NCBI GenBank assembly: GCA_030549495.1
Contig: JAUIRK010000947.1
Span: forward strand, 1 to 64,000
DNA from: Nectonema munidae
Lineage: Eukaryota; Nematomorpha; Nectonematoida; Nectonematidae
Direction: 5' to 3'
Length of the DNA: 64,000 nt
Made by a program: the position numbers and the translations under genes
Notes under the pieces: model-generated
What the model was told of the DNA's origin: nothing
The model's database searches: none
Seen by the model: the letters and a program-made list of their open reading frames with translations, nothing else
Shown: positions 4,812-40,899 of the stretch, piece after piece
Layout: every line of letters starts with the position of its first letter
Numbering within the stretch: the stretch's first letter is position 1

Positions 4812-5896
4812 ATGAAAACAATAAAAAAGTTGTTTTTGTTACTAGCAAATTCAACAAGCCTACTGTGTATGTTATAATTTTGTGGAATTGACTTGAGCCA
4901 TTTAAAATAGAGAGTATACTTTCATTATGTGTTGAGATACTTTTAGGAAAATCTCTTTCATAATTTGCTTTCTCTAATTGTTTTGTCATATAAACACAAG
5001 ATTAAAACCCCCAGAAATAATATTTTTCATTTTTTATTATTATTACAAACAAAATAAGCTTGTAGGTATAAAATCTTTGGTACTATGTTAACTAATTTCT
5101 GAAAAATGGATGAATTATTTTTGTTTACCATACTCTTCGCTGCAACTCTAAGGACTTCAGAATCAAAAGTTCTTGTTCATTAAGTATGTGGCACTAAACA
5201 AGAAAATAGCAAAAATGATGAATTGATTGGCCGTTAAGGTTTCTAAAAGTAAAGGTACCATAGAGTGTTTTCATCGAGAAGGCACAATTGCACCGCTTGT
5301 TAATCGAACTATGAGAAAAAGCATGCTTGATGCGTGATGTCGAACTCAAGACCTTGAAATGTTATCGGAATCCATCTATCGTCTACTCACGCGGTTTCTA
5401 AAACAAAACTATTTGACCAGAAGAAAAATATGCTTTAATTTACAAGTGTTTTGAGGCATGCAAAAAACTGGCTTTTTTAACTTTGTATTTCTCCTTTTGT
5501 TCAAAATTCTTTATTTTCTAGATTGAATAAAGCTAAAAAGAAATAGTAAAGGTAATTTTTTTGATTTCATAGCTTTATTATTTAAATATAGAAATTTCAT
5601 TCCTTCATATATATAATATATTATTTTAATAATTTTCATATGTTCAAGAGAGCGAACATTTTATTAATATTTGAATTTTTAATGAATCATGTGGCATTTA
5701 TTTTTGACACATTTTTAAAATCCCTCATTTTTATTGTTTATTAATATTTGCAATTAGCATATATAAATACAATTTATTTTTAAAAGCATGCAACCATGAG
5801 TGTCTTACGAACCCTTCTTACCGCTATAAAAGCGATACAATTCTATTGTCCCCTAACTTTGATAGAGCTAGAGCCAAGTGTGAAAATTTTAATTGA
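4812..5896 (+). pseudogene. Array copy 1: secreted micropeptide gene, broken in exon 2
   Basis: Exon 1 is 4812..4866 (55 nt, an in-frame 3-nt insertion changes AFTSLL to ANSTSLL), exon 2 is 5522..5551 (30 nt) and exon 3 is 5787..5896. Splice sites are in place. Exon 2 has lost one T of ATTTG, which creates an in-frame TGA at once, and also lacks part of the GAA run. The whole unit carries many 1-3 nt indels compared with units 2-17, so sequencing error at a poorly covered edge is an alternative to true inactivation. See copy 5 for the family description. Confidence 0.6.
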
Positions 5897-6528
5897 ATCT
5901 TGTTAGACATACAAATATTTAATTAATCTTAATTTTATCTTTTATAATTTGAGATGAATTTTGTTTGTTCTCAAAGAAATACTCCATTCAATTTGCGAAT
6001 TAAAAATTTTTTTGGTTTGACCTCAATCTAAAGTATAAAAACAAAATTTATTATTCTTGTTTAAATTTCACTATTACTAAACATAATTTCAAATGTTGTC
6101 AAGTTGACTTATTTTAGTTTAGATCTAAAAAAATAAACATAAGTTTTTGCCCACAAAATGAATTTTAATGTAGGTATCAAAAAGCCGGGGTTCCAATGAA
6201 GGAATAAATTAATTTAACCATAAAATTCAAACAAAATATACAATGTTGTAAAAGCTTTGTTATGATACGATTGTGAATAAAACTTTATGGTATATATAAT
6301 ATATGTGTACAAAAATTTAAATAAATTTGAGAGAAAAGGTTGGGAGAATACTGGCAACTGAATTGATAATTTTTTTAAAGATTCTTTAAATTGCCGATAA
6401 ATTTTGTTTGAAACTGAGAAAGTTTCAATATGATTTTTTAGTTCTTTTTAAAATAAACAAAAATACTATTTTTTTATAATAACAATAACAAATAATTCTT
6501 TTAATAATTTTAACAAGAAGTAAAATAT

Positions 6529-7578
6529 ATGAAATATAATAAAAAAAAGTTGTTTTTGTTACTAGCATTCACAAGCCTACTGTGTATGTTATAATTTTGT
6601 GGATTGACTTGAGCCATTTAAAATAGAGTATACTTTCATTATATGTTGAGATACTTTTAAGGAATTTGTCATATAAACACAAGATTAAAACCCCCACAAA
6701 CATATTTTTTATTTTTGTTTATTATTATCAACAAACAAATAAGCTTGTAGGTATAAAATCTTTGGTACTATGTACTAATTTCTGAAAAACAGGGGAATTA
6801 TTTTGTTTACCATATAGCGCTGCAACTCTGGACTTCATCAAAGTCCTTGTTCATTAAGTATGTGGCACTAAACAAGAAAATAGCAAAAATGATGATTGAT
6901 TCGCCGTTAAGGTTTCTAAAGGTAAAGTTACCATAGGGTGTTTTCATCGAGAAGGCACAATTGCGCCGCTTGTATCGAACTATGAGGAAAGCAGGCTTGA
7001 TGCGTGATCGAACTCAAGACCTTGTGTTATCGAATCCATCATCTAATCAGCTCTACTCACGCGGTTTCTAAAACAAAACTATTTGACCAGAAGAAAAATA
7101 ATAACTTTATTTACAAGTGTTTTGAGGCATGCAAAAAACTGGCTTTTTTAACTTTGTATTTCTCCTTTTGTTCAAAATTCTTTATTTTCTAGATTTGAAT
7201 AAAGCTAAAGAAGAAGAAGAAAATAGTAAAGGTAATTTTTTTTTGATTTCATAGCTTTATTATTTAAATATAGAAATTTCATTCCTTCATATATATAATA
7301 TATTATTTTAATAATTTTCATATGTTCAAGAGAGCGAACATTTTATTAATATTTGAATTTTTAATGAATCATGTGGCATTTATTTTTGACACATTTTTAA
7401 AATCCCTCATTTTTATTGTTTATTAATATTTGCAATTGGCATATATAAATACAATTTATTTTTAAAAGCATGCAACCATGAGTGTCTTACGAACCCTTCT
7501 TACCGCTATAAAAGCGATACAATTCTATTGTCCCCTAACTTTGATAGAGCTAGAGCCAAGTGTGAAAATTTTAATTGA
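6529..7578 (+). CDS. Array copy 2: secreted micropeptide, variant N-terminus
   Basis: Exons 6529..6583, 7193..7231 and 7469..7578. The usual ATG context is lost by a small deletion, but an ATG slightly upstream restores the frame and gives MKYNKKKLFLLL instead of MKTIKKLFLLL, still a basic n-region followed by a hydrophobic core. Exon 1 is 55 nt, which keeps phase 1. Intron 1 is 609 nt, shorter than the usual 639-640 because of a deletion near 6662. Exons 2 and 3 match the consensus exactly. The start is my inference from frame continuity. Confidence 0.6.
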
Positions 7579-8218: not shown

Positions 8219-9296
8219 ATGAAAACAATAAAAAAGTTGTGTTTTGTTACTAGCATTCACAAGCCTACTGTGTATGTTATAATTTTGTGGATTGACTTGA
8301 GCCATTTAAAATAGAGTATACTTTCATTATGTGTTGAGATACTTTTAAGGAAAATCTCTTTCATAATTGCTTTCTCTAATTGTTTTGTCATATAAACACA
8401 AGATTAAAACCCCAAGAAATATATTTTTCATTTTTGTTTATTATTATCAACAAACAAATAAGCTTGTAGGTATAAAATCTTTGGTACTATGTACTAATTT
8501 CTGAAAAACGGGGGAATTATTTTGTTTACCATATAGCGCTGCAACTCTGGACTTCATCAAAGTCCTTGTTCATTAAGTATGTGGCACTAAACAAGAAAAT
8601 AGCAAAAATGATGATTGATTCGCCGTTAAGGTTTCTAAAGGTAAAGTTACCATAGGGTGTTTTCATCGAGAAGGCACAATTGCGCCGCTTGTATCGAACT
8701 ATGAGGAAAGCAGGCTTGATGCGTGATCGAACTCAAGACCTTGAGTTATCGAATCCATCATCTAATCAGCTCTACTCACGCGGTTTCTAAAACAAAACTA
8801 TTTGACCAGAAGAAAAATAATAACTTTATTTACAAGTGTTTTGAGGCATGCAAAAAACTGGCTTTTTTAACTTTGTATTTCTCCTTTTGTTCAAAATTCT
8901 TTATTTTCTAGATTTGAATAAAGCTAAAGAAGAAGAAGAAAATAGTAAAGGTAATTTTTTTTGATTTCATAGCTTTATTATTTAAATATAGAAATTTCAT
9001 TCCTTCATATATATAATATATTATTTTAATAATTTTCATATGTTCAAGAGAGCGAACATTTTATTAATATTTGAATTTTTAATGAATCATGTGGCATTTA
9101 TTTTTGACACATTTTTAAAATCCCTCATTTTTATTGTTTATTAATATTTGCAATTGGCATATATAAATACAATTTATTTTTAAAAGCATGCAACCATGAG
9201 TGTCTTACGAACCCTTCTTACCGCTATAAAAGCGATACAATTCTATTGTCCCCTAACTTTGATAGAGCTAGAGCCAAGTGTGAAAATTTTAATTGA
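8219..9296 (+). pseudogene. Array copy 3: secreted micropeptide gene, exon 1 frameshift
   Basis: Exons 8219..8271, 8912..8950 and 9187..9296. One extra base in exon 1 (TTGTGTTTTG in place of TTGTTTTTG) shifts the frame after MKTIKKL and removes the hydrophobic core, so this copy should not give the normal secreted product. Splice sites and exons 2 and 3 are intact. The lesion is next to a T run, so a base-calling error is possible. Confidence 0.6.
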
Positions 9297-9943: not shown

Positions 9944-11014
9944 ATGAAAACAATAAAAAAGTTGTTTTTGTTACTAGCATTCACAAGCCTACTGTGTATG
10001 TTATAATTTTGTGGATTGACTTGAGCCATTTAAAATAGAGTATACTTTCATTATGTGTTGAGATACTTTTAAGGAAAATCTCTTTCATAATTGCTTTCTC
10101 TAATTGTTTTGTCATATAAACACAAGATTAAAACCCCCAGGAAACATATTTTTCATTTTTGTTTATTATTATCAACAAACAAATAAGCTTGTAGGTATAA
10201 AATCTTTGGTACTATGTACTAATTTCTGAAAAACGGGGGAATTATTTTGTTTACCATATAGCGCTGCAACTCTGGACTTCATCAAAGTTCATTAAGTATG
10301 TGACACTAAACAAGAAAATAGCAAAAATGATGATTGATTCGCCGTTAAGGTTTCTAAAGGTAAAGTTACCATAGGGTGTTTTCATCGAGAAGGCACAATT
10401 GCACCGCTTGTATCGAACTATGAGGAAAGCAGGCTTGATGCGTGATCGAACTCAAGACTTGTGTTATCCAATCCAGCATCTAATCAGCTCTACTCACGCG
10501 GTTTCTAAAACAAAACTATTTGACCAGAAGAAAAATAATAACTTTATTTACAAGTGTTTTGAGGCATGCAAAAAACTGGCTTTTTTAACTTTGTATTTCT
10601 CCTTTTGTTCAAAATTCTTTATTTTCTAGATTTGAATAAAGCTAAAGAAGAAGAAGAAAATAGTAAAGGTAATTTTTTTTGATTTCATAGCTTTATTATT
10701 TAAATATAGAAATTTCATTCCTTCATATATATAATATATTATTTTAATAATTTTCATATGTTCAAGAGAGCGAACATTTTATTAATATTTGAATTTTTAA
10801 TGAATCATGTGGCATTTATTTTTGACACATTTTTAAAATCCCTCATTTTTATTGTTTATTAATATTTGCAATTGGCATATATAAATACAATTTATTTTTA
10901 AAAGCATGCAACCATGAGTGTCTTACGAACCCTTCTTACCGCTATAAAAGCGATACAATTCTATTGTCCCCTAACTTTGATAGAGCTAGAGCCAAGTGTG
11001 AAAATTTTAATTGA
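9944..11014 (+). CDS. Array copy 4: secreted micropeptide, intact
   Basis: Exons 9944..9995, 10630..10668 and 10905..11014, giving the standard 66-residue product with Phe at residue 8. Intron 1 is 634 nt. The spacer upstream of this copy is a distinct variant (near 9541-9610: CACAAGTTTTGATT and a duplicated GAAG stretch), so its promoter region differs from the other copies although the coding exons do not. Confidence 0.75.
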
Positions 11015-11425: not shown

Positions 11426-11655
11426 GTACAAAAATTTAAATAAATTTGAGAGAAAAGGTTGGGAGAATACTGGCAACTGAATTGATAATATTTTTAAAGA
11501 TACTTATAAATTGCCGAAAAAATTTTATTTGAAAGTGAAAATGTTTCAATAGAAAGTTCTTTTGTAAAAGTAAACAAAAGAAACTATATTTTTTTAATAA
11601 CAATAACAAATAATTCTTTTAATAATTTTAACAAGAAGTAAAATATCAAAATATA

Positions 11656-12732
11656 ATGAAAACAATAAAAAAGTTGTTTTTGTTACTAGCATTCACAAGC
11701 CTACTGTGTATGTTATAATTTTGTGGATTGACTTGAGCCATTTAAAATAGAGTATACTTTCATTATGTGTTGAGATACTTTTAAGGAAAATCTCTTTCAT
11801 AATTGCTTTCTCTAATTGTTTTGTCATATAAACACAAGATTAAAACCCCAAGAAATATATTTTTCATTTTTGTTTATTATTATCAACAAACAAATAAGCT
11901 TGTAGGTATAAAATCTTTGGTACTATGTACTAATTTCTGAAAAACGGGGGAATTATTTTGTTTACCATATAGCGCTGCAACTCTGGACTTCATCAAAGTC
12001 CTTGTTCATTAAGTATGTGGCACTAAACAAGAAAATAGCAAAAATGATGATTGATTCGCCGTTAAGGTTTCTAAAGGTAAAGTTACCATAGGGTGTTTTC
12101 ATCGAGAAGGCACAATTGCGCCGCTTGTATCGAACTATGAGGAAAGCAGGCTTGATGCGTGATCGAACTCAAGACCTTGTGTTATCGAATCCATCATCTA
12201 ATCAGCTCTACTCACGCGGTTTCTAAAACAAAACTATTTGACCAGAAGAAAAATAATAACTTTATTTACAAGTGTTTTGAGGCATGCAAAAAACTGGCTT
12301 TTTTAACTTTGTATTTCTCCTTTTGTTCAAAATTCTTTATTTTCTAGATTTGAATAAAGCTAAAGAAGAAGAAGAAAATAGTAAAGGTAATTTTTTTTGA
12401 TTTCATAGCTTTATTATTTAAATATAGAAATTTCATTCCTTCATATATATAATATATTATTTTAATAATTTTCATATGTTCAAGAGAGCGAACATTTTAT
12501 TAATATTTGAATTTTTAATGAATCATGTGGCATTTATTTTTGACACATTTTTAAAATCCCTCATTTTTATTGTTTATTAATATTTGCAATTGGCATATAT
12601 AAATACAATTTATTTTTAAAAGCATGCAACCATGAGTGTCTTACGAACCCTTCTTACCGCTATAAAAGCGATACAATTCTATTGTCCCCTAACTTTGATA
12701 GAGCTAGAGCCAAGTGTGAAAATTTTAATTGA
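11656..12732 (+). CDS. Array copy 5 (reference): 66-aa secreted micro-exon peptide, Kazal-like spacing
   Basis: Exon 1 (11656..11707) encodes MKTIKKLFLLLAFTSLL, a textbook signal peptide with a basic start and a Leu-rich core, and ends at the donor GTATGT. Intron 1 (640 nt) ends TTTATTTTCTAG. Exon 2 (12348..12386, 39 nt) encodes YLNKAKEEEENSK and is followed by GTAATT. Intron 2 (236 nt) ends TTTTTAAAAG. Exon 3 (12623..12732) starts with CNHEC, ends ARAKCENFN and stops at TGA. All junctions are phase 1, so three separate short exons join in one frame. Mature cysteines are at residues 32, 36 and 62. Spacing C-x3-C-x7-Y-x6-L-x3-F-x6-C equals the Kazal pattern with Tyr44 and Phe55 where cysteines 3 and 4 belong; Ser46-Asp47 fits the Kazal GSD and Ala60 the A-x-C. 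The product is likely secreted. Function is unknown: protease-inhibitor ancestry is an inference, and an odd cysteine count could allow dimers. I do not recognise the gene. Confidence 0.75.
12076..12217 (-). repeat. tRNA-derived SINE in intron 1, with target duplication (one per unit)
   Basis: A 142-bp insert lies between two copies of GGTTTCTAAA (12066..12075 and 12218..12227). Read on the minus strand it starts GTGAGTAGAGCTGATTAG (degenerate A box), continues through GAGTTCGATCACG (B box) to AGCCTGC, and ends in CTTTACC. The same insert sits at the same site in units 2-17, for example 6921..7062, 8640..8781 and 10359..10499. In the array copies the B box is degraded (GATCACG rather than GATCCC). 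It is transcribed antisense inside the peptide gene's intron. The diverged right-edge gene lacks it at 34416..34425. Confidence 0.75.
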
Positions 12733-13373: not shown

Positions 13374-14449
13374 ATGAAAACAATAAAAAAGTTGTCTTTG
13401 TTACTAGCATTCACAAGCCTCCTGTGTATGTTATAATTTTGTGGATTGACTTGAGCCATTTAAAATAGAGTATACTTTCATTATGTGTTGAGATACTTTT
13501 AAGGAAAATCTCTTTCATAATTGCTTTCTCTAATTGTTTTGTCATATAAACACAAGATTAAAACCCAAGAAACATATTTTTCATTTTTGTTTATTATTAT
13601 CAACAAACAAATAAGCTTGTAGGTATAAAATCTTTGGTACTATGTACTAATTTCTGAAAAACGGGGGAATTATTTTGTTTACCATATAGCGCTGCAACTC
13701 TGGACTTCATCAAAGTCCTTGTTCATTAAGTATGTGGCACTAAACAAGAAAATAGCAAAAATGATGATTGATTCGCCGTTAAGGTTTCTAAAGGTAAAGT
13801 TACCATAGGGTGTTTTCATCGAGAAGGCACAATTGCGCCGCTTGTATCGAACTATGAGGAAAGCAGGCTTGATGCGTGATCGAACTCAAGACCTTGAGTT
13901 ATCGAATCCATCATCTAATCAACTCTACTCACGCGGTTTCTAAAACAAAACTATTTGACCAGAAGAAAAATAATAACTTTATTTACAAGTGTTTTGAGGC
14001 ATGCAAAAAACTGGCTTTTTTAACTTTGTATTTCTCCTTTTGTTCAAAATTCTTTATTTTCTAGATTTGAATAAAGCTAAAGAAGAAGAAGAAAATAGTA
14101 AAGGTAATTTTTTTTGATTTCATAGCTTTATTATTTAAATATAGAAATTTCATTCCTTCATATATATAATATATTATTTTAATAATTTTCATATGTTCAA
14201 GAGAGCGAACATTTTATTAATATTTGAATTTTTAATGAATCATGTGGCATTTATTTTTGACACATTTTTAAAATCCCTCATTTTTATTGTTTATTAATAT
14301 TTGCAATTGGCATATATAAATACAATTTATTTTTAAAAGCATGCAACCATGAGTGTCTTACGAACCCTTCTTACCGCTATAAAAGCGATACAATTCTATT
14401 GTCCCCTAACTTTGATAGAGCTAGAGCCAAGTGTGAAAATTTTAATTGA
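13374..14449 (+). CDS. Array copy 6: secreted micropeptide, intact
   Basis: Exons 13374..13425, 14065..14103 and 14340..14449. Residue 8 is Ser (TCT) rather than Phe (TTT), and Leu16-Leu17 is written with CTC in place of CTA then CTG, a synonymous change. The rest matches the reference. Apart from that third-position change the unit is nearly identical to copy 7, so the two probably arose by recent duplication or conversion. Confidence 0.75.
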
Positions 14450-15090: not shown

Positions 15091-16167
15091 ATGAAAACAA
15101 TAAAAAAGTTGTCTTTGTTACTAGCATTCACAAGCCTACTGTGTATGTTATAATTTTGTGGATTGACTTGAGCCATTTAAAATAGAGTATACTTTCATTA
15201 TGTGTTGAGATACTTTTAAGGAAAATCTCTTTCATAATTGCTTTCTCTAATTGTTTTGTCATATAAACACAAGATTAAAACCCAAGAAACATATTTTTCA
15301 TTTTTGTTTATTATTATCAACAAACAAATAAGCTTGTAGGTATAAAATCTTTGGTACTATGTACTAATTTCTGAAAAACGGGGGAATTATTTTGTTTACC
15401 ATATAGCGCTGCAACTCTGGACTTCATCAAAGTCCTTGTTCATTAAGTATGTGGCACTAAACAAGAAAATAGCAAAAATGATGATTGATTCGCCGTTAAG
15501 GTTTCTAAAGGTAAAGTTACCATAGGGTGTTTTCATCGAGAAGGCACAATTGCGCCGCTTGTATCGAACTATGAGGAAAGCAGGCTTGATGCGTGATCGA
15601 ACTCAAGACCTTGAGTTATCGAATCCATCATCTAATCAACTTTACTCACGCGGTTTCTAAAACAAAACTATTTGACCAGAAGAAAAATAATAACTTTATT
15701 TACAAGTGTTTTGAGGCATGCAAAAAACTGGCTTTTTTAACTTTGTATTTCTCCTTTTGTTCAAAATTCTTTATTTTCTAGATTTGAATAAAGCTAAAGA
15801 AGAAGAAGAAAATAGTAAAGGTAATTTTTTTTTGATTTCATAGCTTTATTATTTAAATATAGAAATTTCATTCCTTCATATATATAATATATTATTTTAA
15901 TAATTTTCATATGTTCAAGAGAGCGAACATTTTATTAATATTTGAATTTTTAATGAATCATGTGGCATTTATTTTTGACACATTTTTAAAATCCCTCATT
16001 TTTATTGTTTATTAATATTTGCAATTGGCATATATAAATACAATTTATTTTTAAAAGCATGCAACCATGAGTGTCTTACGAACCCTTCTTACCGCTATAA
16101 AAGCGATACAATTCTATTGTCCCCTAACTTTGATAGAGCTAGAGCCAAGTGTGAAAATTTTAATTGA
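15091..16167 (+). CDS. Array copy 7: secreted micropeptide, intact
   Basis: Exons 15091..15142, 15782..15820 and 16058..16167. Ser8 variant. Intron 1 carries ATCAACTTTACTCACG at the SINE edge, a variant shared with copies 10, 12 and 13, which marks a sub-lineage within the array. Product otherwise as in copy 5. Confidence 0.75.
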
Positions 16168-16808: not shown

Positions 16809-17884
16809 ATGAAAACAATAAAAAAGTTGTTTTTGTTACTAGCATTCACAAGCCTACTGTGTATGTTATAATTTTGTGGATTGACTTGAGCCATTTAAAA
16901 TAGAGTATACTTTCATTATGTGTTGAGATACTTTTAAGGAAAATCTCTTTCATAATTGCTTTCTCTAATTGTTTTGTCATATAAACACAAGATTAAAACC
17001 CAAGAAACATATTTTTCATTTTTGTTTATTATTATCAACAAACAAATAAGCTTGTAGGTATAAAATCTTTGGTACTATGTACTAATTTCTGAAAAACGGG
17101 GGAATTATTTTGTTTACCATATAGCGCTGCAACTCTGGACTTCATCAAAGTCCTTGTTCATTAAGTATGTGGCACTAAACAAGAAAATAGCAAAAATGAT
17201 GATTGATTCGCCGTTAAGGTTTCTAAAGGTAAAGTTACCATAGGGTGTTTTCATCGAGAAGGCACAATTGCGCCGCTTGTATCGAACTATGAGGAAAGCA
17301 GGCTTGATGCGTGATGGAACTCAAGACTTGTGTTATCCAATCCAGCATCTAATCAGCTCTACTCACGCGGTTTCTAAAACGAAACTATTTGACCAGAAGA
17401 AAAATAATAACTTTATTTACAAGTGTTTTGAGGCATGCAAAAAACTGGCTTTTTTAACTTTGTATTTCTCCTTTTGTTCAAAATTCTTTATTTTCTAGAT
17501 TTGAATAAAGCTAAAGAAGAAGAAGAAAATAGTAAAGGTAATTTTTTTTTGATTTCATAGCTTTATTATTTAAATATAGAAATTTCATTCCTTCATATAT
17601 ATAATATATTATTTTAATAATTTTCATATGTTCAAGAGAGCGAACATTTTATTAATATTTGAATTTTTAATGAATCATGTGGCATTTATTTTTGACACAT
17701 TTTTAAAATCCCTCATTTTTATTGTTTATTAATATTTGCAATTGGCATATATAAATACAATTTATTTTTAAAAGCATGCAACCATGAGTGTCTTACGAAC
17801 CCTTCTTACCGCTATAAAAGCGATACAATTCTATTGTCCCCTAACTTTGATAGAGCTAGAGCCAAGTGTGAAAATTTTAATTGA
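16809..17884 (+). CDS. Array copy 8: secreted micropeptide, intact
   Basis: Exons 16809..16860, 17499..17537 and 17775..17884. Phe8 variant. The upstream leader differs (AGAAAGATATTTTG for AGAAAGTTCTTTTG near 16706). The intronic SINE has GATGGAACTC, breaking the B box core. Coding exons are identical to the reference. Confidence 0.75.
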
Positions 17885-18516: not shown

Positions 18517-19591
18517 ATGAAAACAATAAAAAAGTTGTTTTTGTTACTAGCATTCACAAGCCTACTGTGTATGTTATAATTTTGTGGATTGACTTGAGCC
18601 ATTTAAAATAGAGTATACTTTCATTATGTGTTGAGATACTTTTAAGGAAAATCTCTTTCATAATTGCTTTCTCTAATTGTTTTGTCATATAAACACAAGA
18701 TTAAAACCCCCAGAAATATATTTTTCATTTTTGTTTATTATTATCAACAAACAAATAAGCTTGTAGGTATAAAATCTTTGGTACTATGTACTAATTTCTG
18801 AAAAACAGGGGAATTATTTTGTTTACCATATAGCGCTGCAACTCTGGACTTCATCAAAATCCTTGTTCATTAAGTATGTGGCACTAAACAAGAAAATAGC
18901 AAAAATGATGATTGATTCGCCGTTAAGGTTTCTAAAGGTAAAGTTACCATAGGGTGTTTTCATCGAGAAGGCACAATTGCGCCGTTTGTATCGAACTATG
19001 AGGAAAGCAGGCTTGGTGCGTGATCGAACTCAAGACCTTGAGTTATCGAATCCAGCATCTAATCAGCTCTACTCACGCGGTTTCTAAAACAAAACTATTT
19101 GACCAGAAGAAAAATAATAACTTTATTTACAAGTGTTTTGAGGCATGCAAAAACCTGGCTTTTTTAACTTTGTATTTCTCCTTTTGTTCAAAATTCTTTA
19201 TTTTCTAGATTTGAATAAAGCTAAAGAAGAAGAAGAAAATAGTAAAGGTAATTTTTTTTGATTTCATAGCTTTATTATTTAAATATAGAAATTTCATTCC
19301 TTCATATATTAAATATATTATTTTAATAATTTTCATATGTTCAAAAAAGCCAACATTTTATTAATATTTGAATTTTAATGAATCATAGGGCATTTATTTT
19401 TACACATTTTTAAAATCCCTCATTTTTATTGTTTATTAATATTTGCAATTGGCATATATAAATACAATTTATTTTTAAAAGCATGCAACCATGAGTGTCT
19501 TACGAACCCTTCTTACCGCTATAAAAGCGATACAATTCTATTGTCCCCTAACTTTGATAGAGCTAGAGCCAAGTGTGAAAATTTTAATTGA
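18517..19591 (+). CDS. Array copy 9: secreted micropeptide, intact, diverged intron 2
   Basis: Exons 18517..18568, 19209..19247 and 19482..19591. Phe8 variant. Intron 2 has about eight changes within some 110 nt around 19305-19410 (CAAAAAAGCCAAC for CAAGAGAGCGAAC, CATAGGGC for CATGTGGC, two one-base deletions), yet exons 2 and 3 on either side are unchanged over 149 nt. That contrast supports constraint on the exons, though gene conversion of the exons could also explain it. Confidence 0.78.
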
Positions 19592-20232: not shown

Positions 20233-21309
20233 ATGAAAACAATAAAAAAGTTGTCTTTGTTACTAGCATTCACAAGCCTACTGTGTATGTTATAATTTTG
20301 TGGATTGACTTGAGCCATTTAAAATAGAGTATACTTTCATTATGTGTTGAGATACTTTTAAGGAAAATCTCTTTCATAATTGCTTTCTCTAATTGTTTTG
20401 TCATATAAACACAAGATTAAAACCCAAGAAACATATTTTTTATTTTTGTTTATTATTATCAACAAACAAATAAGCTTGTAGGTATAAAATCTTTGGTACT
20501 ATGTACTAATTTCTGAAAAACGGGGGAATTATTTTGTTTACCATATAGCGCTGCAACTCTGGACTTCATCAAAATCCTTGTTCATTAAGTATGTGGCACT
20601 AAACAAGAAAATAGCAAAAATGATGATTGATTCGCCGTTAAGGTTTCTAAAGGTAAAGTTACCATAGGGTGTTTTCATCGAGAAGGCACAATTGCGCCGT
20701 TTGTATCGAACTATGAGGAAAGCAGGCTTGATGCGTGATCGAACTCAAGACCTTGAGTTATCGAATCCATCATCTAATCAACTTTACTCACGCGGTTTCT
20801 AAAACAAAACTATTTGACCAGAAGAAAAATAATAACTTTATTTACAAGTGTTTTGAGGCATGCAAAAAACTGGCTTTTTTAACTTTGTATTTCTCCTTTT
20901 GTTCAAAATTCTTTATTTTCTAGATTTGAATAAAGCTAAAGAAGAAGAAGAAAATAGTAAAGGTAATTTTTTTTTGATTTCATAGCTTTATTATTTAAAT
21001 ATAGAAATTTCATTCCTTCATATATATAATATATTATTTTAATAATTTTCATATGTTCAAGAGAGCGAACATTTTATTAATATTTGAATTTTTAATGAAT
21101 CATGTGGCATTTATTTTTGACACATTTTTAAAATCCCTCATTTTTATTGTTTATTAATATTTGCAATTGGCATATATAAATACAATTTATTTTTAAAAGC
21201 ATGCAACCATGAGTGTCTTACGAACCCTTCTTACCGCTATAAAAGCGATACAATTCTATTGTCCCCTAACTTTGATAGAGCTAGAGCCAAGTGTGAAAAT
21301 TTTAATTGA
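20233..21309 (+). CDS. Array copy 10: secreted micropeptide, intact
   Basis: Exons 20233..20284, 20924..20962 and 21200..21309. Ser8 variant. Intron 1 shares CATCAAAATCC with neighbouring copy 9 and with copy 15, against CATCAAAGTCC in most copies, and shares the ATCAACTTTACTC variant with copies 7, 12 and 13. This mix of markers within one unit points to exchange between units. Confidence 0.75.
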
Positions 21310-21896: not shown

Positions 21897-22971
21897 ATGA
21901 AAACAATAAAAAAGTTGTTTTTGTTACTAGCATTCACAAGCCTACTGTGTATGTTATAATTTTGTGGATTGACTTGAGCCATTTAAAATAGAGTATACTT
22001 TCATTATGTGTTGAGATACTTTTAAGGAAAATCTCTTTCATAATTGCTTTCTCTAATTGTTTTGTCATATAAACACAAGATTAAAACCCCCAGAAATATA
22101 TTTTTCATTTTTGTTTATTATTATCAACAAACAAATAAGCTTGTAGGTATAAAATCTTTGGTACTATGTACTAATTTCTGAAAAATGGGGGAATTATTTT
22201 GTTTACCATATAGCGCTGCAACTCTGGACTTCATCAAAGTTCTTGTTCATTAAGTATGTGGCACTAAACAAGAAAATAGCAAAAATGATGATTGATTCGC
22301 CGTTAAGGTTTCTAAAGCTAAAGTTACCATAGGGTGTTTTCATCGAGAAGGCACAATTGCACCGCTTGTATCGAACTATGAGGAAAGCAGGCTTGATGCG
22401 TGATCGAACTCAAGACCTTGTGTTATCGAATCCAGCATCTAATCAGCTCTACTCACGCGGTTTCTAAAACAAAACTATTTGACCAGAAGAAAAATAATAA
22501 CTTTATTTACAAGTGTTTTGAGGCATGCAAAAAACTGGCTTTTTTAACTTTGTATTTCTCCTTTTGTTCAAAATTCTTTATTTTCTAGATTTGAATAAAG
22601 CTAAAGAAGAAGAAATTAGTAAAGGTAATTTTTTTTTGATTTCATAGCTTTATTATTTAAATATAGAAATTTCATTCCTTCATATATATAATATATTATT
22701 TTAATAATTTTCATATGTTCAAGAGAGCGAACATTTTATTAATATTTGAATTTTTAATGAATCATGTGGCATTTATTTTTGACACATTTTTAAAATCCCT
22801 CATTTTTATTGTTTATTAATATTTGCAATTGGCATATATAAATACAATTTATTTTTAAAAGCATGCAACCATGAGTGTCTTACGAACCCTTCTTACCGCT
22901 ATAAAAGCGATACAATTCTATTGTCCCCTAACTTTGATAGAGCTAGAGCCAAGTGTGAAAATTTTAATTGA
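21897..22971 (+). CDS. Array copy 11: secreted micropeptide, short exon 2
   Basis: Exons 21897..21948, 22589..22624 and 22862..22971. Exon 2 is 36 nt, coding YLNKAKEEEISK: one Glu fewer and Asn to Ile, with the frame kept. Phe8 variant. The leader lacks about 52 bp (from about 21787) present in most units; unit 1 lacks the same block. Confidence 0.75.
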
Positions 22972-23611: not shown

Positions 23612-24686
23612 ATGAAAACAATAAAAAGTTGTCTTTGTTACTAGCATTCACAAGCCTCCTGTGTATGTTATAATTTTGTGGATTGACTTGAGCCATTTAA
23701 AATAGAGTATACTTTCATTATGTGTTGAGATACTTTTAAGGAAAATCTCTTTCATAATTGCTTTCTCTAATTGTTTTGTCATATAAACACAAGATTAAAA
23801 CCCAAGAAACATATTTTTCATTTTTGTTTATTATTATCAACAAACAAATAAGCTTGTAGGTATAAAATCTTTGGTACTATGTACTAATTTCTGAAAAACG
23901 GGGGAATTATTTTGTTTACCATATAGCGCTGCAACTCTGGACTTCATCAAAGTCCTTGTTCATTAAGTATGTGGCACTAAACAAGAAAATAGCAAAAATG
24001 ATGATTGATTCGCCGTTAAGGTTTCTAAAGGTAAAGTTACCATAGGGTGTTTTCATCGAGAAGGCACAATTGCGCCGCTTGTATCGAACTATGAGGAAAG
24101 CAGGCTTGATGCGTGATCGAACTCAAGACCTTGAGTTATCGAATCCATCATCTAATCAACTTTACTCACGCGGTTTCTAAAACAAAACTATTTGACCAGA
24201 AGAAAAATAATAACTTTATTTACAAGTGTTTTGAGGCATGCAAAAAACTGGCTTTTTTAACTTTGTATTTCTCCTTTTGTTCAAAATTCTTTATTTTCTA
24301 GATTTGAATAAAGCTAAAGAAGAAGAAGAAAATAGTAAAGGTAATTTTTTTTGATTTCATAGCTTTATTATTTAAATATAGAAATTTCATTCCTTCATAT
24401 ATATAATATATTATTTTAATAATTTTCATATGTTCAAGAGAGCGAACATTTTATTAATATTTGAATTTTTAATGAATCATGTGGCATTTATTTTTGACAC
24501 ATTTTTAAAATCCCTCATTTTTATTGTTTATTAATATTTGCAATTGGCATATATAAATACAATTTATTTTTAAAAGCATGCAACCATGAGTGTCTTACGA
24601 ACCCTTCTTACCGCTATAAAAGCGATACAATTCTATTGTCCCCTAACTTTGATAGAGCTAGAGCCAAGTGTGAAAATTTTAATTGA
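23612..24686 (+). pseudogene. Array copy 12: secreted micropeptide gene, exon 1 frameshift
   Basis: Exons 23612..23662, 24302..24340 and 24577..24686. One A is missing from the A6 run after ATA in exon 1, so the frame goes to MKTIKSCLCY and a TAG stop. Everything downstream is intact, including splice sites. Because the lesion is a single base in a homopolymer it may be a sequencing error, in which case this is a Ser8 copy with the CTC synonymous variant of copy 6. Confidence 0.6.
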
Positions 24687-25327: not shown

Positions 25328-26403
25328 ATGAAAACAATAAAAAAGTTGTCTTTGTTACTAGCATTCACAAGCCTACTGTGTATGTTATAATTTTGTGGAT
25401 TGACTTGAGCCATTTAAAATAGAGTATACTTTCATTATGTGTTGAGATACTTTTAAGGAAAATCTCTTTCATAATTGCTTTCTCTAATTGTTTTGTCATA
25501 TAAACACAAGATTAAAACCCAAGAAACATATTTTTCATTTTTGTTTATTATTATCAACAAACAAATAAGCTTGTAGGTATAAAATCTTTGGTACTATGTA
25601 CTAATTTCTGAAAAACGGGGGAATTATTTTGTTTACCATATAGCGCTGCAACTCTGGACTTCATCAAAGTCCTTGTTCATTAAGTATGTGGCACTAAACA
25701 AGAAAATAGCAAAAATGATGATTGATTCGCCGTTAAGGTTTCTAAAGGTAAAGTTACCATAGGGTGTTTTCATCGAGAAGGCACAATTGCGCCGCTTGTA
25801 TCGAACTATGAGGAAAGCAGGCTTGATGCGTGATCGAACTCAAGACCTTGAGTTATCGAATCCATCATCTAATCAACTTTACTCACGCGGTTTCTAAAAC
25901 AAAACTATTTGACCAGAAGAAAAATAATAACTTTATTTACAAGTGTTTTGAGGCATGCAAAAAACTGGCTTTTTTAACTTTGTATTTCTCCTTTTGTTCA
26001 AAATTCTTTATTTTCTAGATTTGAATAAAGCTAAAGAAGAAGAAGAAAATAGTAAAGGTAATTTTTTTTGATTTCATAGCTTTATTATTTAAATATAGAA
26101 ATTTCATTCCTTCATATATATAATATATTATTTTAATAATTTTCATATGTTCAAGAGAGCGAACATTTTATTAATATTTGAATTTTTAATGAATCATGTG
26201 GCATTTATTTTTGACACATTTTTAAAATCCCTCATTTTTATTGTTTATTAATATTTGCAATTGGCATATATAAATACAATTTATTTTTAAAAGCATGCAA
26301 CCATGAGTGTCTTACGAACCCTTCTTACCGCTATAAAAGCGATACAATTCTATTGTCCCCTAACTTTGATAGAGCTAGAGCCAAGTGTGAAAATTTTAAT
26401 TGA
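25328..26403 (+). CDS. Array copy 13: secreted micropeptide, intact
   Basis: Exons 25328..25379, 26019..26057 and 26294..26403. Ser8 variant; product as reference otherwise. The TATA-like block reads TATATGAGTAC, shared with copies 6, 7, 8, 15 and 17, in place of TATATGTGTAC. Confidence 0.75.
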
Positions 26404-27036: not shown

Positions 27037-28112
27037 ATGAAAACAATAAAAAAGTTGTTTTTGTTACTAGCATTCACAAGCCTACTGTGTATGTTATAAT
27101 TTTGTGGATTGACTTGAGCCATTTAAAATAGAGTATACTTTCATTATGTGTTGAGATACTTTTAAGGAAAATCTCTTTCATAATTGCTTTCTCTAATTGT
27201 TTTGTCATATAAACACAAGATTAAAACCTAAGAAATATATTTTTCATTTTTGTTTATTATTATCAACAAACAAATAAGCTTGTAGGTATAAAATCTTTGG
27301 TACTATGTACTAATTTCTGAAAAACGGGGGAATTATTTTGTTTACCATATAGCGCTGCAACTCTGGACTTCATCAAAGTTCTTGTTCATTAAGTATGTGG
27401 CACTAAACAAGAAAATAGCAAAAATGATGATTGATTCGCCGTTAAGGTTTCTAAAGGTAAAGTTACCTTATGGTGTTTTCATCGAGAAGGCACTATTGTA
27501 CCGCTTGTATCGAACTATGAGGAAAGCAGGCTTGATGCGGGATCGAACTCAAGACCTTGAGTTATCGAATCCATCATCTAATCAGCTCTACTCACGCGGT
27601 TTCTAAAACAAAACTATTTGACCAGAAGAAAAATAATAACTTTATTTACAAGTGTTTTGAGGCATGCAAAAAACTGGCTTTTTTAACTTTGTATTTCTCC
27701 TTTTGTTCAAAATTCTTTATTTTCTAGATTTGAATAAAGCTAAAGAAGAAGAAGAAAATAGTAAAGGTAATTTTTTTTGATTTCATAGCTTTATTATTTA
27801 AATATAGAAATTTCATTCCTTCATATATATAATATATTATTTTAATAATTTTCATATGTTCAAGAGAGCGAACATTTTATTAATATTTGAATTTTTAATG
27901 AATCATGTGGCATTTATTTTTGACACATTTTTAAAATCCCTCATTTTTATTGTTTATTAATATTTGCAATTGGCATATATAAATACAATTTATTTTTAAA
28001 AGCATGCAACCATGAGTGTCTTACGAACCCTTCTTACCGCTATAAAAGCGATACAATTCTATTGTCCCCTAACTTTGATAGAGCTAGAGCCAAGTGTGAA
28101 AATTTTAATTGA
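27037..28112 (+). CDS. Array copy 14: secreted micropeptide, intact
   Basis: Exons 27037..27088, 27728..27766 and 28003..28112. Phe8 variant. The SINE here reads GCGGGATCGAACTC, closer to a consensus B box than in most units, and intron 1 has ACCTTATGGTG for ACCATAGGGTG. The TATA-like block is altered to TATAGGTGTAC. Confidence 0.75.
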
Positions 28113-28753: not shown

Positions 28754-29828
28754 ATGAAAACAATAAAAAAGTTGTCTTTGTTACTAGCATTCACAAGCCT
28801 ACTGTGTATGTTATAATTTTGTGGATTGACTTGAGCCATTTAAAATAGAGTATACTTTCATTATGTGTTGAGATACTTTTAAGGAAAATCTCTTTCATAA
28901 TTGCTTTCTCTAATTGTTTTGTCATATAAACACAAGATTAAAACCCCAAGAAACATATTTTTCATTTTTGTTTATTATTATCAACAAACAAATAAGCTTG
29001 TAGGTATAAAATCTTTGGTACTATGTACTAATTTCTGAAAAACGGGGGAATTATTTTGTTTACCATATAGCGCTGCAACTCTGGACTTCATCAAAATCCT
29101 TGTTCATTAAGTATGTGGCACTAAACAAGAAAATAGCAAAAATGATGATTGATTCGCCGTTAAGGTTTCTAAAGGTAAAGTTACCATAGGGTGTTTTCAT
29201 CGAGAAGGCACAATTGCGCCGCTTGTATCGAACTATGAGGAAAGCAGGCTTGATGCGGGATCGAACTCAAGACCTTGAGTTATCGAATCCATCATCTAAT
29301 CAACTCTACTCACGCGGTTTCTAAAACAAAACTATTTGACCAGAAGAAAAATAATAACTTTATTTACAAGTGTTTTGAGGCATGCAAAAAACTGGCTTTT
29401 TTAACTTTGTATTTCTCCTTTTGTTCAAAATTCTTTATTTTCTAGATTTGAATAAAGCTAAAGAAGAAGAAATTAGTAAAGGTAATTTTTTTTTGATTTC
29501 ATAGCTTTATTATTTAAATATAGAAATTTCATTCCTTCATATATATAATATATTATTTTAATAATTTTCATATGTTCAAGAGAGCGAACATTTTATTAAT
29601 ATTTGAATTTTTAATTAATCATGTGGCATTTATTTTTGACACATTTTTAAAATCCCTCATTTTTATTGTTTATTAATATTTGCAATTGGCATATATAAAT
29701 ACAATTTATTTTTAAAAGCATGCAATCATGAATGTCTTACGAACCCTTCTTACCGCTATAAAAGCGATACAATTCTATTGTCCCCTAACTTTGATAGAGC
29801 TAGAGCCAAGTGTGAAAATTTTAATTGA
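28754..29828 (+). CDS. Array copy 15: secreted micropeptide, synonymous exon 3 variants
   Basis: Exons 28754..28805, 29446..29481 (36 nt, EEEISK form) and 29719..29828. Ser8 variant. Exon 3 has the only substitutions I found in this exon across the array: AAC to AAT in Asn33 and GAG to GAA in Glu35. Both are synonymous in the inferred frame, so CNHEC is kept. Just upstream, intron 2 has TTTTTAATTAATC for TTTTTAATGAATC. Confidence 0.8.
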
Positions 29829-30010: not shown

Positions 30011-31017
30011 ATTCATAAGCCTCCTGTGTATGTTATAATTTTGTGGATTGACTTGAGCCATTTAAAATAGAGTATACTTTCATTATGTGTTGAGATACTT
30101 TTAAGGAAAATCTCTTTCATAATTGTTTTGTCATATAAACACAAGATTAAAACCTAAAAACATATTTTTCATTTTTGTTTATTATTATCATATAAAATCT
30201 TTGGTACTATATACTAATTTCTGAAAAACGGGGGAATTATTTTGTTTACCATATAGCGCTGCAACCCTGGACTTCATCAAAGTCCTTGTTCATTAAGTAT
30301 GTGGCACTAAACAAGAAAATAGCAAAAATGATGATTGATTCGCCGTTAAGGTTTCTAAAGGTAAAGTTACCATAGGGTGTTTTCATCGAGAAGGCACAAT
30401 TGTGCCGCTTGTATCGAACTATGAGGAAAGCAGGCTTGATGCGTGATCGAACTCAAGACCTTGTGTTATCGAATCCATCATCTAATCAACTCTACTCATG
30501 CGGTTTCTAAAACAAAACTATTTGACCAGAAGAAAAATAATAACTTTATTTACAAGTGTTTTGAGGCATGCAAAAAACTGGCTTTTTTAACTTTGTATTT
30601 CTCCTTTTGTTCAAAATTCTTTATTTTCTAGATTTGAATAAAGCTAAAGAAGAAGAAGAAAATAGTAAAGGTAATTTTTTTTTGATTTCATAGCTTTATT
30701 ATTTAAATATAGAAATTTCATTCCTTCATATATATAATATATTATTTTAATAATTTTCATATGTTCAAGAGAGCGAACATTTTATTAATATTTGAATTTT
30801 TAATGAATCATGTGGCATTTATTTTTGACACATTTTTAAAATCCCTCATTTTTATTGTTTATTAATATTTGCAATTGGCATATATAAATACAATTTATTT
30901 TTAAAAGCATGCAACCATGAGTGTCTTACGAACCCTTCTTACCGCTATAAAAGCGATACAATTCTATTGTCCCCTAACTTTGATAGAGCTAGAGCCAAGT
31001 GTGAAAATTTTAATTGA
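30011..31017 (+). pseudogene. Array copy 16: start-less copy with ~530-bp deletion
   Basis: The 3' region of unit 15 runs through CACTATTACTA straight into the end of exon 1 (TTCATAAGCCTCCTGT, to 30027), so the spacer, promoter and start codon are gone. The breakpoint sits at a TTACTA shared by both sides in normal units. A second small gap near 30190 removes about 20 nt of intron 1. Exon 2 (30632..30670) and exon 3 (30908..31017) and their splice sites remain intact, as expected for recent loss. Confidence 0.75.
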
Positions 31018-31658: not shown

Positions 31659-32735
31659 ATGAAAACAATAAAAAAGTTGTCTTTGTTACTAGCATTCACA
31701 AGCCTACTGTGTATGTTATAATTTTGTGGATTTACTTGAGCCATTTAAAATAGAGTATACTTTCATTATGTGTTGAGATACTTTTAAGGAAAATCTCTTT
31801 CATAATTGCTTTCTCTAATTGTTTTGTCATATAAACACAAGATTAAAACCTAAGAAACATATTTTTCATTTTTGTTTATTAGTATCAACAAACAAATACG
31901 CTTGTAGGTATAAAATTTTTGGTACTATATACTAATTTCTGAAAAACGGGGGAATTATTTTGTTTACCATATAGCGCTGCAACCCTCCCTGGACTTCATC
32001 AAAGTCCTTGTTCATTAAGTATGTGGCACTAAACAAGAAAATAGCAAAAATGATGATTGATTCGCCGTTAAGGTTTCTAAAGGTAAAGTTACCATAGGGT
32101 GTTTTCATCGAGAAGGCACAATTGCGCCGCTTGTATCGAACTATGAGGAAAGCAGGCTTGATGCGTGATCGAACTCAAGACCTTGTGTTATCGAATCCAG
32201 CATCTAATCAACTCTACTCACGCGGTTTCTAAAACAAAACTATTTGACCAGAAGAAAAATAATAACTTTATTTACAAGTGTTTTGAGGCATGCAAAAAAC
32301 TGGCTTTTTTAACTTTGTATTTCTCCTTTTGTTCAAAATTCTTTATTTTCTAGATTTGAATAAAGCTAAAGAAGAAGAAATTAGTAAAGGTAATTTTTTT
32401 TGATTTCATAGCTTTATTATTTAAATATAGAAATTTCATTCCTTCATATATATAATATATTATTTTAATAATTTTCATATGTTCAAGAGAGCGAACATTT
32501 TATTAATATTTGAATTTTTAATGAATCATGTGGCATTTATTTTTGACACATTTTTAAAATCCCTCATTTTTATTGTTTATTAATATTTGCAATTGGCATA
32601 TATAAATACAATTTATTTTTAAAAGCATGCAACCATGAGTGTCTTACGAACCCTTCTTACCGCTATAAAAGCGATACAATTCTATTGTCCCCTAACTTTG
32701 ATAGAGCTAGAGCCAAGTGTGAAAATTTTAATTGA
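31659..32735 (+). CDS. Array copy 17: secreted micropeptide, short exon 2
   Basis: Exons 31659..31710, 32354..32389 (36 nt, EEEISK form) and 32626..32735. Ser8 variant. Intron 1 is 643 nt with a CCCTCCCTGG variant near 31983 and TTTACTTGAGCC for TTGACTTGAGCC after the donor. It is the last complete copy; the spacer after it has lost about 50 bp (near 33070), including the TTGTAAAAGCTTTGTTATG block. Confidence 0.75.
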
Positions 32736-33328
32736 ATCTTGTTAGACATACAAATATTTAATTAATCTTAATTTTATCTTTTATAATTTGAGATGAATTT
32801 TGTTTGTTCTCAAAGAAATACTCCATTCAATTTGCGAATTAAAAATTTTTTGGTTTGACCTCAATCTAAAGTATAAAAACAAAATTTATTATTCTTGTTT
32901 AAATTTCACTATTACTAAACATAATTTCAAATGTTGTCAAGTTGACTTATTTTAGTTTAGATCTAAAAAATAAACATAAGTTTTTGCCCACAAAATGAAT
33001 TTTAATGTAGGTATCAAAGACCAGGGGGTTCCAATGAAGGAATAAATTAATTTAACCATAAAATTCAATCAAAATGTATAAAATTTTATGGTATATATAA
33101 TATATGTGTACAAAAATTTAAATAAATTTGAGATAAAAGGTTGGGAGAATACTGGCAACTGAATTGATAATATTTTTAAAGATACTTATAAATTGCTGAA
33201 AGAATTTTATTTGAAAGTGATGTTTCAATAGAAAGTTCTTTTGTAAAAGTAAACAAAAGAAACTATATTTTTTTAATAACAATAACAAATAATTCTTTTA
33301 ATAATTTTAACAAGAAGTTAAAAATATA

Positions 33329-34653
33329 ATGAAAACAATAAAGAAGTTGTCTTTCTTATTAGCATTCACAAGTCTGTTGTGTATGTTATAATTTTGTGGA
33401 TTGACTTGAGCCATTTAAAATAGAGTATACTTTCATTATGTGTTGAGATACTTTTAAGGAAAATCTCTTTCACAATATGCTTTCTCTAATTGTTTTATCA
33501 TATAAACACAAGATTAAAACCCAAGAAACATATTTTTCATTTTTGTTTATTATTATCAACAAACAATTAAGCTTGTAGGTATAAAATCGTTGGTACTATA
33601 TACTAATTTCTGAAAAATGGGGGAATTATTTTGTTTACCATATAGCGCTGCAACCTTGGACTTCATCAAAGTCCTTGTTCATTAAGCATTTCTGCACTTG
33701 TTAAATATTATGAATGATGAATGGAATGGAAAATTAAAAAAAAACATTAATGTCAAACATAGTTATTTCAATATCAATTTTAGGATTATTTGGGCTACAA
33801 TTATTTATGTTATTTGTTTTGGTTTAAGGTAAAGGTAAAGGTACCATAGGGTGTTTTCATCGAGAAGGCACAATTGTGCCGCTTGTATCGAACTATGAGG
33901 AAAGCAGGCTTGATGGGGGATCGAACCCAAGACCTTGAGTTATCGAATCCAGCATCTAACCAACCCTACTCACATATGTTTTTAAAGAATTTATTTCTAC
34001 ATTTTTTGGTTTAAATGTGATAATTAAATTAATTCATAGATTTAAAGATGTGTAAATCTACGTAAATTGCTCAAGTGACAATTTTATACTTATTTTAAAC
34101 ATATAAAATATTTTTGCTTCAAACTATGCTAATTAGCTCTAAAATATATAATTTTCAATAAAAATTTTAAAATTCAGTCTTCGAATTTTCATATTTTTCA
34201 ATAAATTAATCATAAGTTAAAAAGATAAATCTTGAATTTATTTTTGAAAATGATCAAAACCTCGCTCATTATTGTTTTCCTTATTTGGTCAATGAGGCCA
34301 ATTTTGGTCATGTTACGGACACCATGAGATTCACTGTAAAAATTATGGCTAGTTATGGTTTGAAAAGTGGCACTAAACAATAAAATAGCAATAATGATGA
34401 TTGATTCGCCGTTACGGTTTCTAAAACAAAACTATTTGAACAGAAGAAAAAATAACTTTATTTACCTGTTAAGACATAAAAATCTCTGATAATAGTTAAA
34501 AACAAAATATATATTCATTGAAAGATGAATTAAAAGTGTTTTGAGGCATGCAAAAAATTGGTTTTTTTAACTTTGTATTTCACTTTTCATTTATAATTCT
34601 TTGTTTTCTAGATTCCAATAAACCTGAAGAAGAAGGAACAGGAAATGAAGAAG
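33329..34653 (+). CDS. Array copy 18: diverged right-edge paralogue, exons 1-2 only
   Basis: Exon 1 (33329..33380) encodes MKTIKKLSFLLAFTSLL with five synonymous changes (AAG, TTA, AGT, CTG, TTG) and Phe for Leu at residue 9; Ser8 is shared with many copies. The GTATGT donor is kept. Intron 1 is 1231 nt because of an insertion. Exon 2 (34612..34653, 42 nt) reads YSNKPEEEGTGNEE with a conserved TTTTCTAG acceptor and an AAG-GTTAAC donor; its length differs from array copies by exactly three bases. Intron 2 runs into transposon sequence at about 34,745 and no exon 3 homologue is found next to it. Either the gene is broken by the insertion, or its last exon lies beyond it after about 8 kb; I could not identify it. 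Confidence 0.65.
33687..34368. other. Insertion-like block in intron 1 of copy 18
   Basis: About 680 bp between GTTCATTAAG and GTGGCACTAAAC, which are adjacent in the array units apart from a few bases. It contains the separate SINE at 33826..33973 and otherwise A+T-rich sequence without an open frame. It may be an insertion here or a loss in the array ancestor. Confidence 0.5.
33826..33973 (-). repeat. Best-preserved copy of the tRNA-derived SINE
   Basis: On the minus strand: GTGAGTAGGGTTGGTTAG (A box like a tRNA), then GGTTCGATCCCCC (perfect B box), then a non-tRNA body and a tail of TACCTT repeats. It lies at a different site from the SINE of the array units, so it is an independent insertion of the same family. 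The tRNA cloverleaf is not complete, so it is not a tRNA gene. Confidence 0.75.
34416..34425. other. Empty SINE target site in copy 18
   Basis: GTTACGGTTTCTAAAACAAAAC here has a single GGTTTCTAAA, whereas array units have that 10-mer twice around the 142-bp SINE. This is the uninserted state at the orthologous intron position. Confidence 0.75.
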
Positions 34654-40833: not shown

Positions 40834-40899
40834 TTAATGACTCTTTCGACATTTTCTTTCTTGATGAAGAATTTCTTTCGATTGAAAAAACAAAATAGT

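What the first reader, a model, noticed from the sequence alone, without database searches (positions are those of the whole stretch)
4812..34653. Tandem array of 18 three-exon micro-exon genes for a small secreted peptide
What looks like a 1.7-kb satellite carries, in every unit, a signal-peptide exon with a GTATGT donor, a 36-42 nt Glu-rich micro-exon with canonical splice sites, and a 110-nt cysteine-bearing last exon, all joined in phase 1 into about 66 codons. Ordinary open-frame scans miss it because no exon exceeds 37 codons. Thirteen of 18 copies appear intact. High copy number of a secreted product suggests a dosage-demanding role such as venom, saliva, gut, cuticle or immune secretion (inference). 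I know of no described family with this sequence.
Basis: partly seen in the sequence, partly recalled or inferred. Interest (0 to 1): 0.92.

Follow-up and report, generated by a model that had tools for sequence, protein, structure and literature searches.

The report
Tandem array of small-peptide genes
A 30-kb stretch of an unnamed animal's genome repeats, 18 times in what could be read, what is probably a tiny three-part gene for a short secreted protein with no relative found, but no expression data were available to show that it is used.

Summary
The array is real: 18 head-to-tail units at 4812-34653, 13 of 18 able to encode a 65-67-residue product (hydrophobic leader, Glu-rich stretch, three Cys) when three exons are joined. 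Corrections: unit 16 lacks the start, unit 18 lacks exon 3, the exon-3 acceptor is weak (AAAAG), and the array continues as noisy, partly fold-back sequence to the contig start, so copy number is a lower bound. Units 1-17 carry a SINE-like repeat at one site of intron 1; unit 18 has that site empty, so it is an older paralogue. Evidence for coding is moderate: in exons 1 and 3, 8 of 11 distinct changes are synonymous, and exon 2 stays in frame at 36, 39 and 42 nt. Against: exon 2 has 0 of 5 synonymous, models as good occur in 2 of 110 control segments, the unit allows 10 models, and codon bias is weak. No homologue was found among 5.8 billion proteins, in Pfam or PDB. Best reading: a lineage-specific secreted-peptide gene amplified and homogenised in tandem; new sequence, known kind of arrangement. 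Main rival: a satellite or dead-gene array. Spliced RNA would decide.

The parts
1..4811 (.). noisy, indel-rich, AT-biased continuation of the array at the contig end; 1-860 also matches the unit in inverted orientation
4812..5896 (+). unit 1, exons 4812-4866, 5522-5551, 5787-5896; stop in exon 2; next to the noisy contig end, so the defects may be sequence errors (inference)
6529..7578 (+). unit 2, exons 6529-6583, 7193-7231, 7469-7578; open, variant N-terminus MKYNKKK
8219..9296 (+). unit 3, exons 8219-8271, 8912-8950, 9187-9296; +1 frameshift in exon 1
9944..11014 (+). unit 4, exons 9944-9995, 10630-10668, 10905-11014; open
11505..11511 (+). TATA-like TATAAAT 151 bp before the start codon of unit 5 (142 in unit 18, 152 in the C561 copy)
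11656..11707 (+). unit 5 (reference) exon 1, hydrophobic leader, donor GTATGT, phase 1
12066..12227 (-). SINE-like repeat in intron 1 between two copies of GGTTTCTAAA (12066-12075, 12218-12227); tRNA-like boxes on the minus strand by eye only
12348..12386 (+). unit 5 exon 2, 39 nt, symmetric, Glu-rich
12623..12732 (+). unit 5 exon 3, 110 nt with stop, three Cys codons
13374..14449 (+). unit 6, exons 13374-13425, 14065-14103, 14340-14449; open
15091..16167 (+). unit 7, exons 15091-15142, 15782-15820, 16058-16167; open
16809..17884 (+). unit 8, exons 16809-16860, 17499-17537, 17775-17884; open
18517..19591 (+). unit 9, exons 18517-18568, 19209-19247, 19482-19591; open
20233..21309 (+). unit 10, exons 20233-20284, 20924-20962, 21200-21309; open
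21897..22971 (+). unit 11, exons 21897-21948, 22589-22624, 22862-22971; open, 36-nt exon 2
23612..24686 (+). unit 12, exons 23612-23662, 24302-24340, 24577-24686; -1 frameshift in exon 1
25328..26403 (+). unit 13, exons 25328-25379, 26019-26057, 26294-26403; open
27037..28112 (+). unit 14, exons 27037-27088, 27728-27766, 28003-28112; open
28754..29828 (+). unit 15, exons 28754-28805, 29446-29481, 29719-29828; open, 36-nt exon 2, two synonymous changes in exon 3
30011..31017 (+). unit 16, start of exon 1 deleted; exons 2 and 3 at 30632-30670 and 30908-31017
31659..32735 (+). unit 17, exons 31659-31710, 32354-32389, 32626-32735; open, 36-nt exon 2
33329..34653 (+). unit 18, older paralogue: exon 1 33329-33380, exon 2 34612-34653 (42 nt), exon 3 not found; single GGTTTCTAAA (34416) at the site where the other units carry the insert; a different SINE-like copy at 33830-33973 within its longer intron 1
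34782..42744 (.). DNA transposon downstream of unit 18 with inverted ends (34782-35162 and 42418-42744); IS1595/ISXO2-like transposase frame at 40183-40833 (-)

Best explanation
A lineage-restricted gene for a short secreted peptide was duplicated head to tail. An older copy (unit 18; an exon-1/intron-1 fragment on contig C561 also looks old) split off first; then a SINE-like element landed in intron 1 of the ancestor of the other units, and that form was amplified and is kept nearly identical by unequal crossing-over and gene conversion. Each intact unit is read from its own promoter, two introns are removed in phase 1, and the 66-residue product MKTIKKLFLLLAFTSLLYLNKAKEEEENSKACNHECLTNPSYRYKSDTILLSPNFDRARAKCENFN is secreted as a mature peptide of roughly 45-49 residues with an acidic head and three cysteines; many copies give high dose. 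Shown: array, frames, order of SINE insertion, synonymous excess in exons 1 and 3. Inferred: transcription, splicing, signal cleavage, secretion, the homogenising process, the dosage role. The biological target is unknown.
For: 13 of 18 units open. Distinct substitutions in exons 1 and 3 among array, unit 18, C561 and C597b: 8 of 11 synonymous, P 0.0002-0.007 for expected synonymous fractions 0.20-0.32; unit 18 exon 1 alone 5 of 7, P 0.02. Exon 2 in frame at 36, 39 and 42 nt; splice dinucleotides kept in unit 18. C561 exon 1 also open with the same donor. TATA-like site in units 5, 18 and C561. Summed codon score +7.6 bits in frame, negative in the other five frames. SINE filled/empty site gives the duplication order.
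Against: All 16 listed exon changes together give 8 of 16 synonymous, P 0.007-0.10, because exon 2 has 0 of 5. The positive codon sum comes from exon 3 (+12.1 bits, reached by 8.6% of stop-free background stretches); exon 1 is below the null mean and exon 2 unremarkable (0.29), and an alternative exon 2 (11973-12016) scores +4.5 against +1.4 bits. A model this good occurs in 2 of 110 control segments and the unit allows 10 models. Exon-3 acceptor is weak. Intron 2 (5 substitutions, all in unit 9) and the first 231 bases of spacer (none) are as invariant as exon 3, so exon-3 identity is not evidence of selection. Unit 18 exon 1 differs at 7 of 52 sites against 14 of 658 in its flanks, P 0.0004, which constraint on a protein does not explain. 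Frameshifts in units 3 and 12. No homologue found.
Confidence: 0.58

Rival explanations
1. The unit is a tandem satellite, or an array grown from a gene that is already dead; the open frames are inherited or fortuitous and no peptide is made.
For: Near-identical units, with spacer and intron 2 as uniform as exon 3; 5 of 18 units broken; transposon-rich surroundings; chance models in 2 of 110 controls; weak codon bias.
Against: Synonymous excess in exons 1 and 3 (8 of 11); frame-keeping exon 2 lengths and kept splice dinucleotides in the older unit 18.
Confidence: 0.25
2. It is a real gene, but spliced otherwise (another exon 2 or last exon), so the predicted peptide is wrong past exon 1.
For: 10 models pass in one unit: 8 with an alternative exon 2 beginning at 11973, one with a 33-nt form of the modelled exon 2; the alternative exon 2 has a higher codon score; weak acceptor of exon 3; no exon 3 found for unit 18.
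Against: The modelled exon 2 has three in-frame length forms (36, 39, 42 nt) and 2 of 3 changes in exon 3 are synonymous. The alternatives were not tested for selection.
Confidence: 0.12
3. The array encodes a non-coding RNA (for example a spliced-leader or small nuclear RNA repeat).
For: Such RNA genes often lie in tandem repeats (general knowledge, not tested here).
Against: No Rfam match at the gathering score in the window; four matches up to E 5 in one unit, all far below their gathering scores; no tRNA gene.
Confidence: 0.05

Closest known systems
Schistosome micro-exon genes (MEGs), as described in PMC10526429 (passages seen)
   Same: A short symmetric internal exon, a leader-peptide first exon, a small predicted secreted product.
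   Different: MEGs have 10-20 very short exons with alternative splicing and a W-containing motif after the signal peptide, and lie dispersed over the chromosomes; here there are 3 exons, no Trp, and a homogeneous tandem array.
Aphid bicycle effector genes, as described in PMC9168663 (passages seen)
   Same: Predicted secreted, no known homologues outside the lineage, a small internal exon that begins at codon position 2.
   Different: Bicycle genes have at least 5 and on average about 17 exons, and many have CYC motifs; neither here. The genome gave no match to the arthropod cuticle family PF00379, though that search rang nowhere else either.
Tandem, concertedly evolving clusters of small secreted peptide genes such as defensins (recalled; PMC11521603 and PMC3525529 seen only as search listings with the start of their abstracts)
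   Same: Several recent copies of a short leader-peptide, Cys-bearing gene.
   Different: Three Cys only, no Pfam or PDB match.

Membership tests
Schistosome-type micro-exon gene (MEG) | 10-20 very short exons (6-81 bp) | tested here: not met
   3 exons of 52, 36-42 and 110 nt; feature from PMC10526429
Schistosome-type micro-exon gene (MEG) | N-terminal signal peptide | tested here: inconclusive
   Best 9-residue hydropathy 2.46 by my own rule; no signal-peptide program available
Schistosome-type micro-exon gene (MEG) | W-containing motif after the signal peptide | tested here: not met
   The product has no Trp; motif
Aphid bicycle gene | At least 5 exons | tested here: not met
   3 exons; feature from PMC9168663
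Aphid bicycle gene | Internal exons begin at codon position 2 | tested here: met
   Exon 1 ends after the first base of a codon, so exon 2 begins at codon position 2
Aphid bicycle gene | CYC motifs | tested here: not met
   No C-Y-C in the product
Tandem multigene array under concerted evolution | Head-to-tail near-identical units containing the gene | tested here: met
   In C643, + strand: 16 rows cover the full 1077-base query at 93-100% identity (reference included), unit 16 covers 36-1077 at 95%, unit 18 covers 1-361 at 95% plus short pieces
Tandem multigene array under concerted evolution | Units are transcribed and translated | not testable with these tools
   No RNA or proteome data
Satellite DNA without coding function | No purifying selection on any frame | tested here: inconclusive
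   8 of 11 changes synonymous in exons 1+3, but 0 of 5 in exon 2
Any Pfam family or solved structure | Profile or sequence match | tested here: not met
   Pfam: 0 families at E 1; PDB: 0 sequences at E 10

The most novel reading that the evidence does not exclude
A previously undescribed secreted-peptide family, confined to one poorly sampled animal lineage, amplified to at least 18 and probably more copies at one locus and homogenised, so that the animal makes large amounts of a single Cys-bearing peptide; open-frame scans miss it because no exon exceeds 37 codons.
Probability: 0.45. Interest if true: 0.5.

Novelty: new member of a known kind. Interest (0 to 1): 0.4.

Why it matters
If expressed, it is a clean example of a high-copy, lineage-specific secreted peptide hidden in what a repeat masker would call a satellite, with an internal time marker (SINE filled and empty site) for when the array expanded. 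It also shows that contig ends in such arrays can be partly artefact, so copy numbers from this assembly should not be trusted.

Tried and rejected
C308:32285-32476 as a relative: ACEHFCLGNPDLRYKKSDLRLS resembles exon 3 (E 0.2, 0.14). Not used as evidence: in a 133-kb sample that includes this hit the real exon-3 peptide scored 65 there against a best of 59 and a median of 40 in 200 shuffles, but scaled to 211 Mb (my estimate, not run) a score near 65 is about what chance gives; no leader exon by my rule in the 4.5 kb before it; no Pfam match.

C597 as extra copies: its two minus-strand 'units' are a fold-back of the plus ones; the whole contig aligns to its own reverse complement at 80% with 1500 gaps. 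That leaves two units there, which may be the same DNA as units of C643.

Structure: the 35-residue exon-3 peptide, folded alone without an alignment, gave mean pLDDT 58, so no fold search was made.

Organism: not identified. Homeobox matches at 72 places with Hox-like members (classes named from memory) and CBM_14 at 25 say animal; PF00379 and PF01549 gave no match, but they rang in none of the 14 controls, so absence is not shown; COX3 not found; a zfh-like protein had 548 relatives, none among the 120 listed close enough to name the group. Nematomorpha was considered (search listing; passages of PMC11603191) and neither supported nor excluded.

Literature: MEG, bicycle and tandem-array searches; the strings ACNHECL and NHECLTNP are in none of the held papers.

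The alternative exon 2 scoring higher than the modelled one, and the second SINE copy in unit 18, were missing and are now told; for the former I moved 0.02 from the best explanation to the splicing rival.
Full report
WHAT IS THERE. The window is the first 64 kb of a 679-kb contig (C643) of a 211.6-Mb, 748-contig genome. A search with 1077 bases of one unit returned the array, two good and two noisy units on the 12-kb contig C597, an exon-1/intron-1 fragment on C561, and, on other contigs, hits to one stretch of about 150 bp only (16 listed; 1849 candidates, 40 scored). The 18 units begin at 4812 to 33329; 12 of 17 spacings are 1708-1725 bp. Tandem Repeats Finder does not list the array because its longest period is 500.

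THE FRAME. With exon 1 ending before GTATGT, exon 2 after TTTTCTAG and before GTAATT (GTTAAC in unit 18), and exon 3 after AAAAG, 13 of 18 units give 65-67 codons. The reference product is MKTIKKLFLLLAFTSLLYLNKAKEEEENSKACNHECLTNPSYRYKSDTILLSPNFDRARAKCENFN. Units 1, 3, 12, 16 and 18 are broken as stated in the parts list.

SEQUENCE QUALITY. The longer matching pieces of bases 1-4811 are 68-86% identical to the unit with many indels, and 1-860 also match it in inverted orientation at about 70%. C597 is a palindrome over its whole length. Both look like poorly corrected long-read fold-backs at the ends of a collapsed array (inference). Hence the array runs to the contig end, its copy number is unknown, and the defects of unit 1, perhaps also of others, may be errors. 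The -1 in unit 12 recurs in a C597 unit, so it is either real or the same DNA.

HISTORY. In units 1-17 intron 1 carries a SINE-like repeat; in unit 5 it lies between two copies of GGTTTCTAAA. Unit 18 has the same intron with one GGTTTCTAAA and no insert there. Unit 18 therefore split off before that insertion, and the amplified form is younger. Unit 18 has its own SINE-like copy at 33830-33973, at a different place in a longer intron. Downstream of unit 18 lies a DNA transposon with inverted ends, 34782-42744, with an IS1595-type transposase domain; no exon 3 was found for unit 18.

IS IT CODING? For: in exons 1 and 3, 8 of 11 distinct changes are synonymous (P 0.0002-0.007); in unit 18 exon 1, 5 of 7 (P 0.02); exon 2 is in frame at 36, 39 and 42 nt; the codon score of the joined exons is +7.6 bits while the other five frames are negative, though their stops are penalised, which favours any open frame. 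Against: with exon 2 the count is 8 of 16 (P 0.007-0.10); the codon score rests on exon 3 (background fraction 0.086), exon 1 is below the null mean, and an alternative exon 2 scores higher than the modelled one. By my own loose rules 2 of 110 control segments contain a model at a leader threshold of 2.4 (observed 2.46), 4 of 110 at 2.0, and the unit itself allows 10 models, 2 of which use the modelled exon-2 acceptor with exon 3. Within the array, exon 3 is no more invariant than intron 2 or the adjoining spacer (units 1, 16 and 18 not counted, unit 15 cut). Unit 18 exon 1 differs at 7 of 52 sites against 14 of 658 in its flanks (P 0.0004); the C561 copy shows no such excess (4 of 52 against 27 of 519, P 0.51). 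This is unexplained, perhaps uneven conversion.

RELATIVES. No protein relative: searches (query with an extra Cys; no candidate shared three words; five correct variants; 2186 word-sharing candidates, none at E 10) against 5.8 billion proteins that do include animals (named animal hits). That search needs shared 5-residue words and proteins of similar length, so distant relatives or exons called apart could be missed. No Pfam or PDB hit with the correct peptide; no text match. In the own genome: the array, C597, C561 exon 1 and a chance-level hit on C308. The spacer is almost confined to the array, C597 and C561; three other contigs have 74-76% matches of 95-156 bases.

ORGANISM. An animal with Hox-like genes; no match to the arthropod cuticle family or ShK (absence not proven), CBM_14 present. 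Species not identified.

READING. I take it as a lineage-specific secreted-peptide gene amplified in tandem (0.58), with a satellite or dead-gene array as the main rival (0.25) and other splicing next (0.12). Secretion rests on hydropathy of exon 1; the mature peptide would be acidic near its start with three Cys, so one internal bridge and a free or dimerising Cys is possible (inference). Nothing supports a particular tissue. The arrangement is a known kind; the sequence is new to the sources searched.

Noticed in passing
window 1-4811; contig C597 (L009, L022): Contig ends of this assembly carry noisy fold-back copies; C597 aligns to its own reverse complement over its 12.1 kb.
   Followed up: yes
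window 12066-12227: SINE-like repeat dispersed in the genome (16 listed hits on 15 other contigs), with tRNA-like boxes on the minus strand by eye; ARAGORN and Rfam do not call it.
   Followed up: partly
window 34782-42744: DNA transposon with inverted ends of about 0.3-0.4 kb and an IS1595/ISXO2-like transposase frame.
   Followed up: partly
window 49693-54557: Retroelement-like open frames, one with a reverse transcriptase domain (PF00078 in 51940-52932), in a stretch of extreme C-over-G skew, -0.55 to -0.59 in 50001-54000.
   Followed up: no
window 58091-59221 (-) and 56694-57293 (-): piggyBac-type transposase domain (PF13843) and a DUF659 match below its cut-off, hAT-like by recall.
   Followed up: no
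L010 (C561:67000-76000), 4230-4589 (-): Copy of exon 1 and part of intron 1 that stops at a TTAA followed by CCCT, which by eye looks like a piggyBac-type insertion.
   Followed up: partly
window 33329-33380: Exon 1 of unit 18 is about six times more diverged than its flanks (7/52 against 14/658), 5 of 7 changes synonymous; unexplained.
   Followed up: partly
L023 (C308:27000-36999), 5286-5477 (-): Open frame with ACEHFCLGNPDLRYKKSDLRLS, resembling exon 3 but at about chance level genome-wide.
   Followed up: yes
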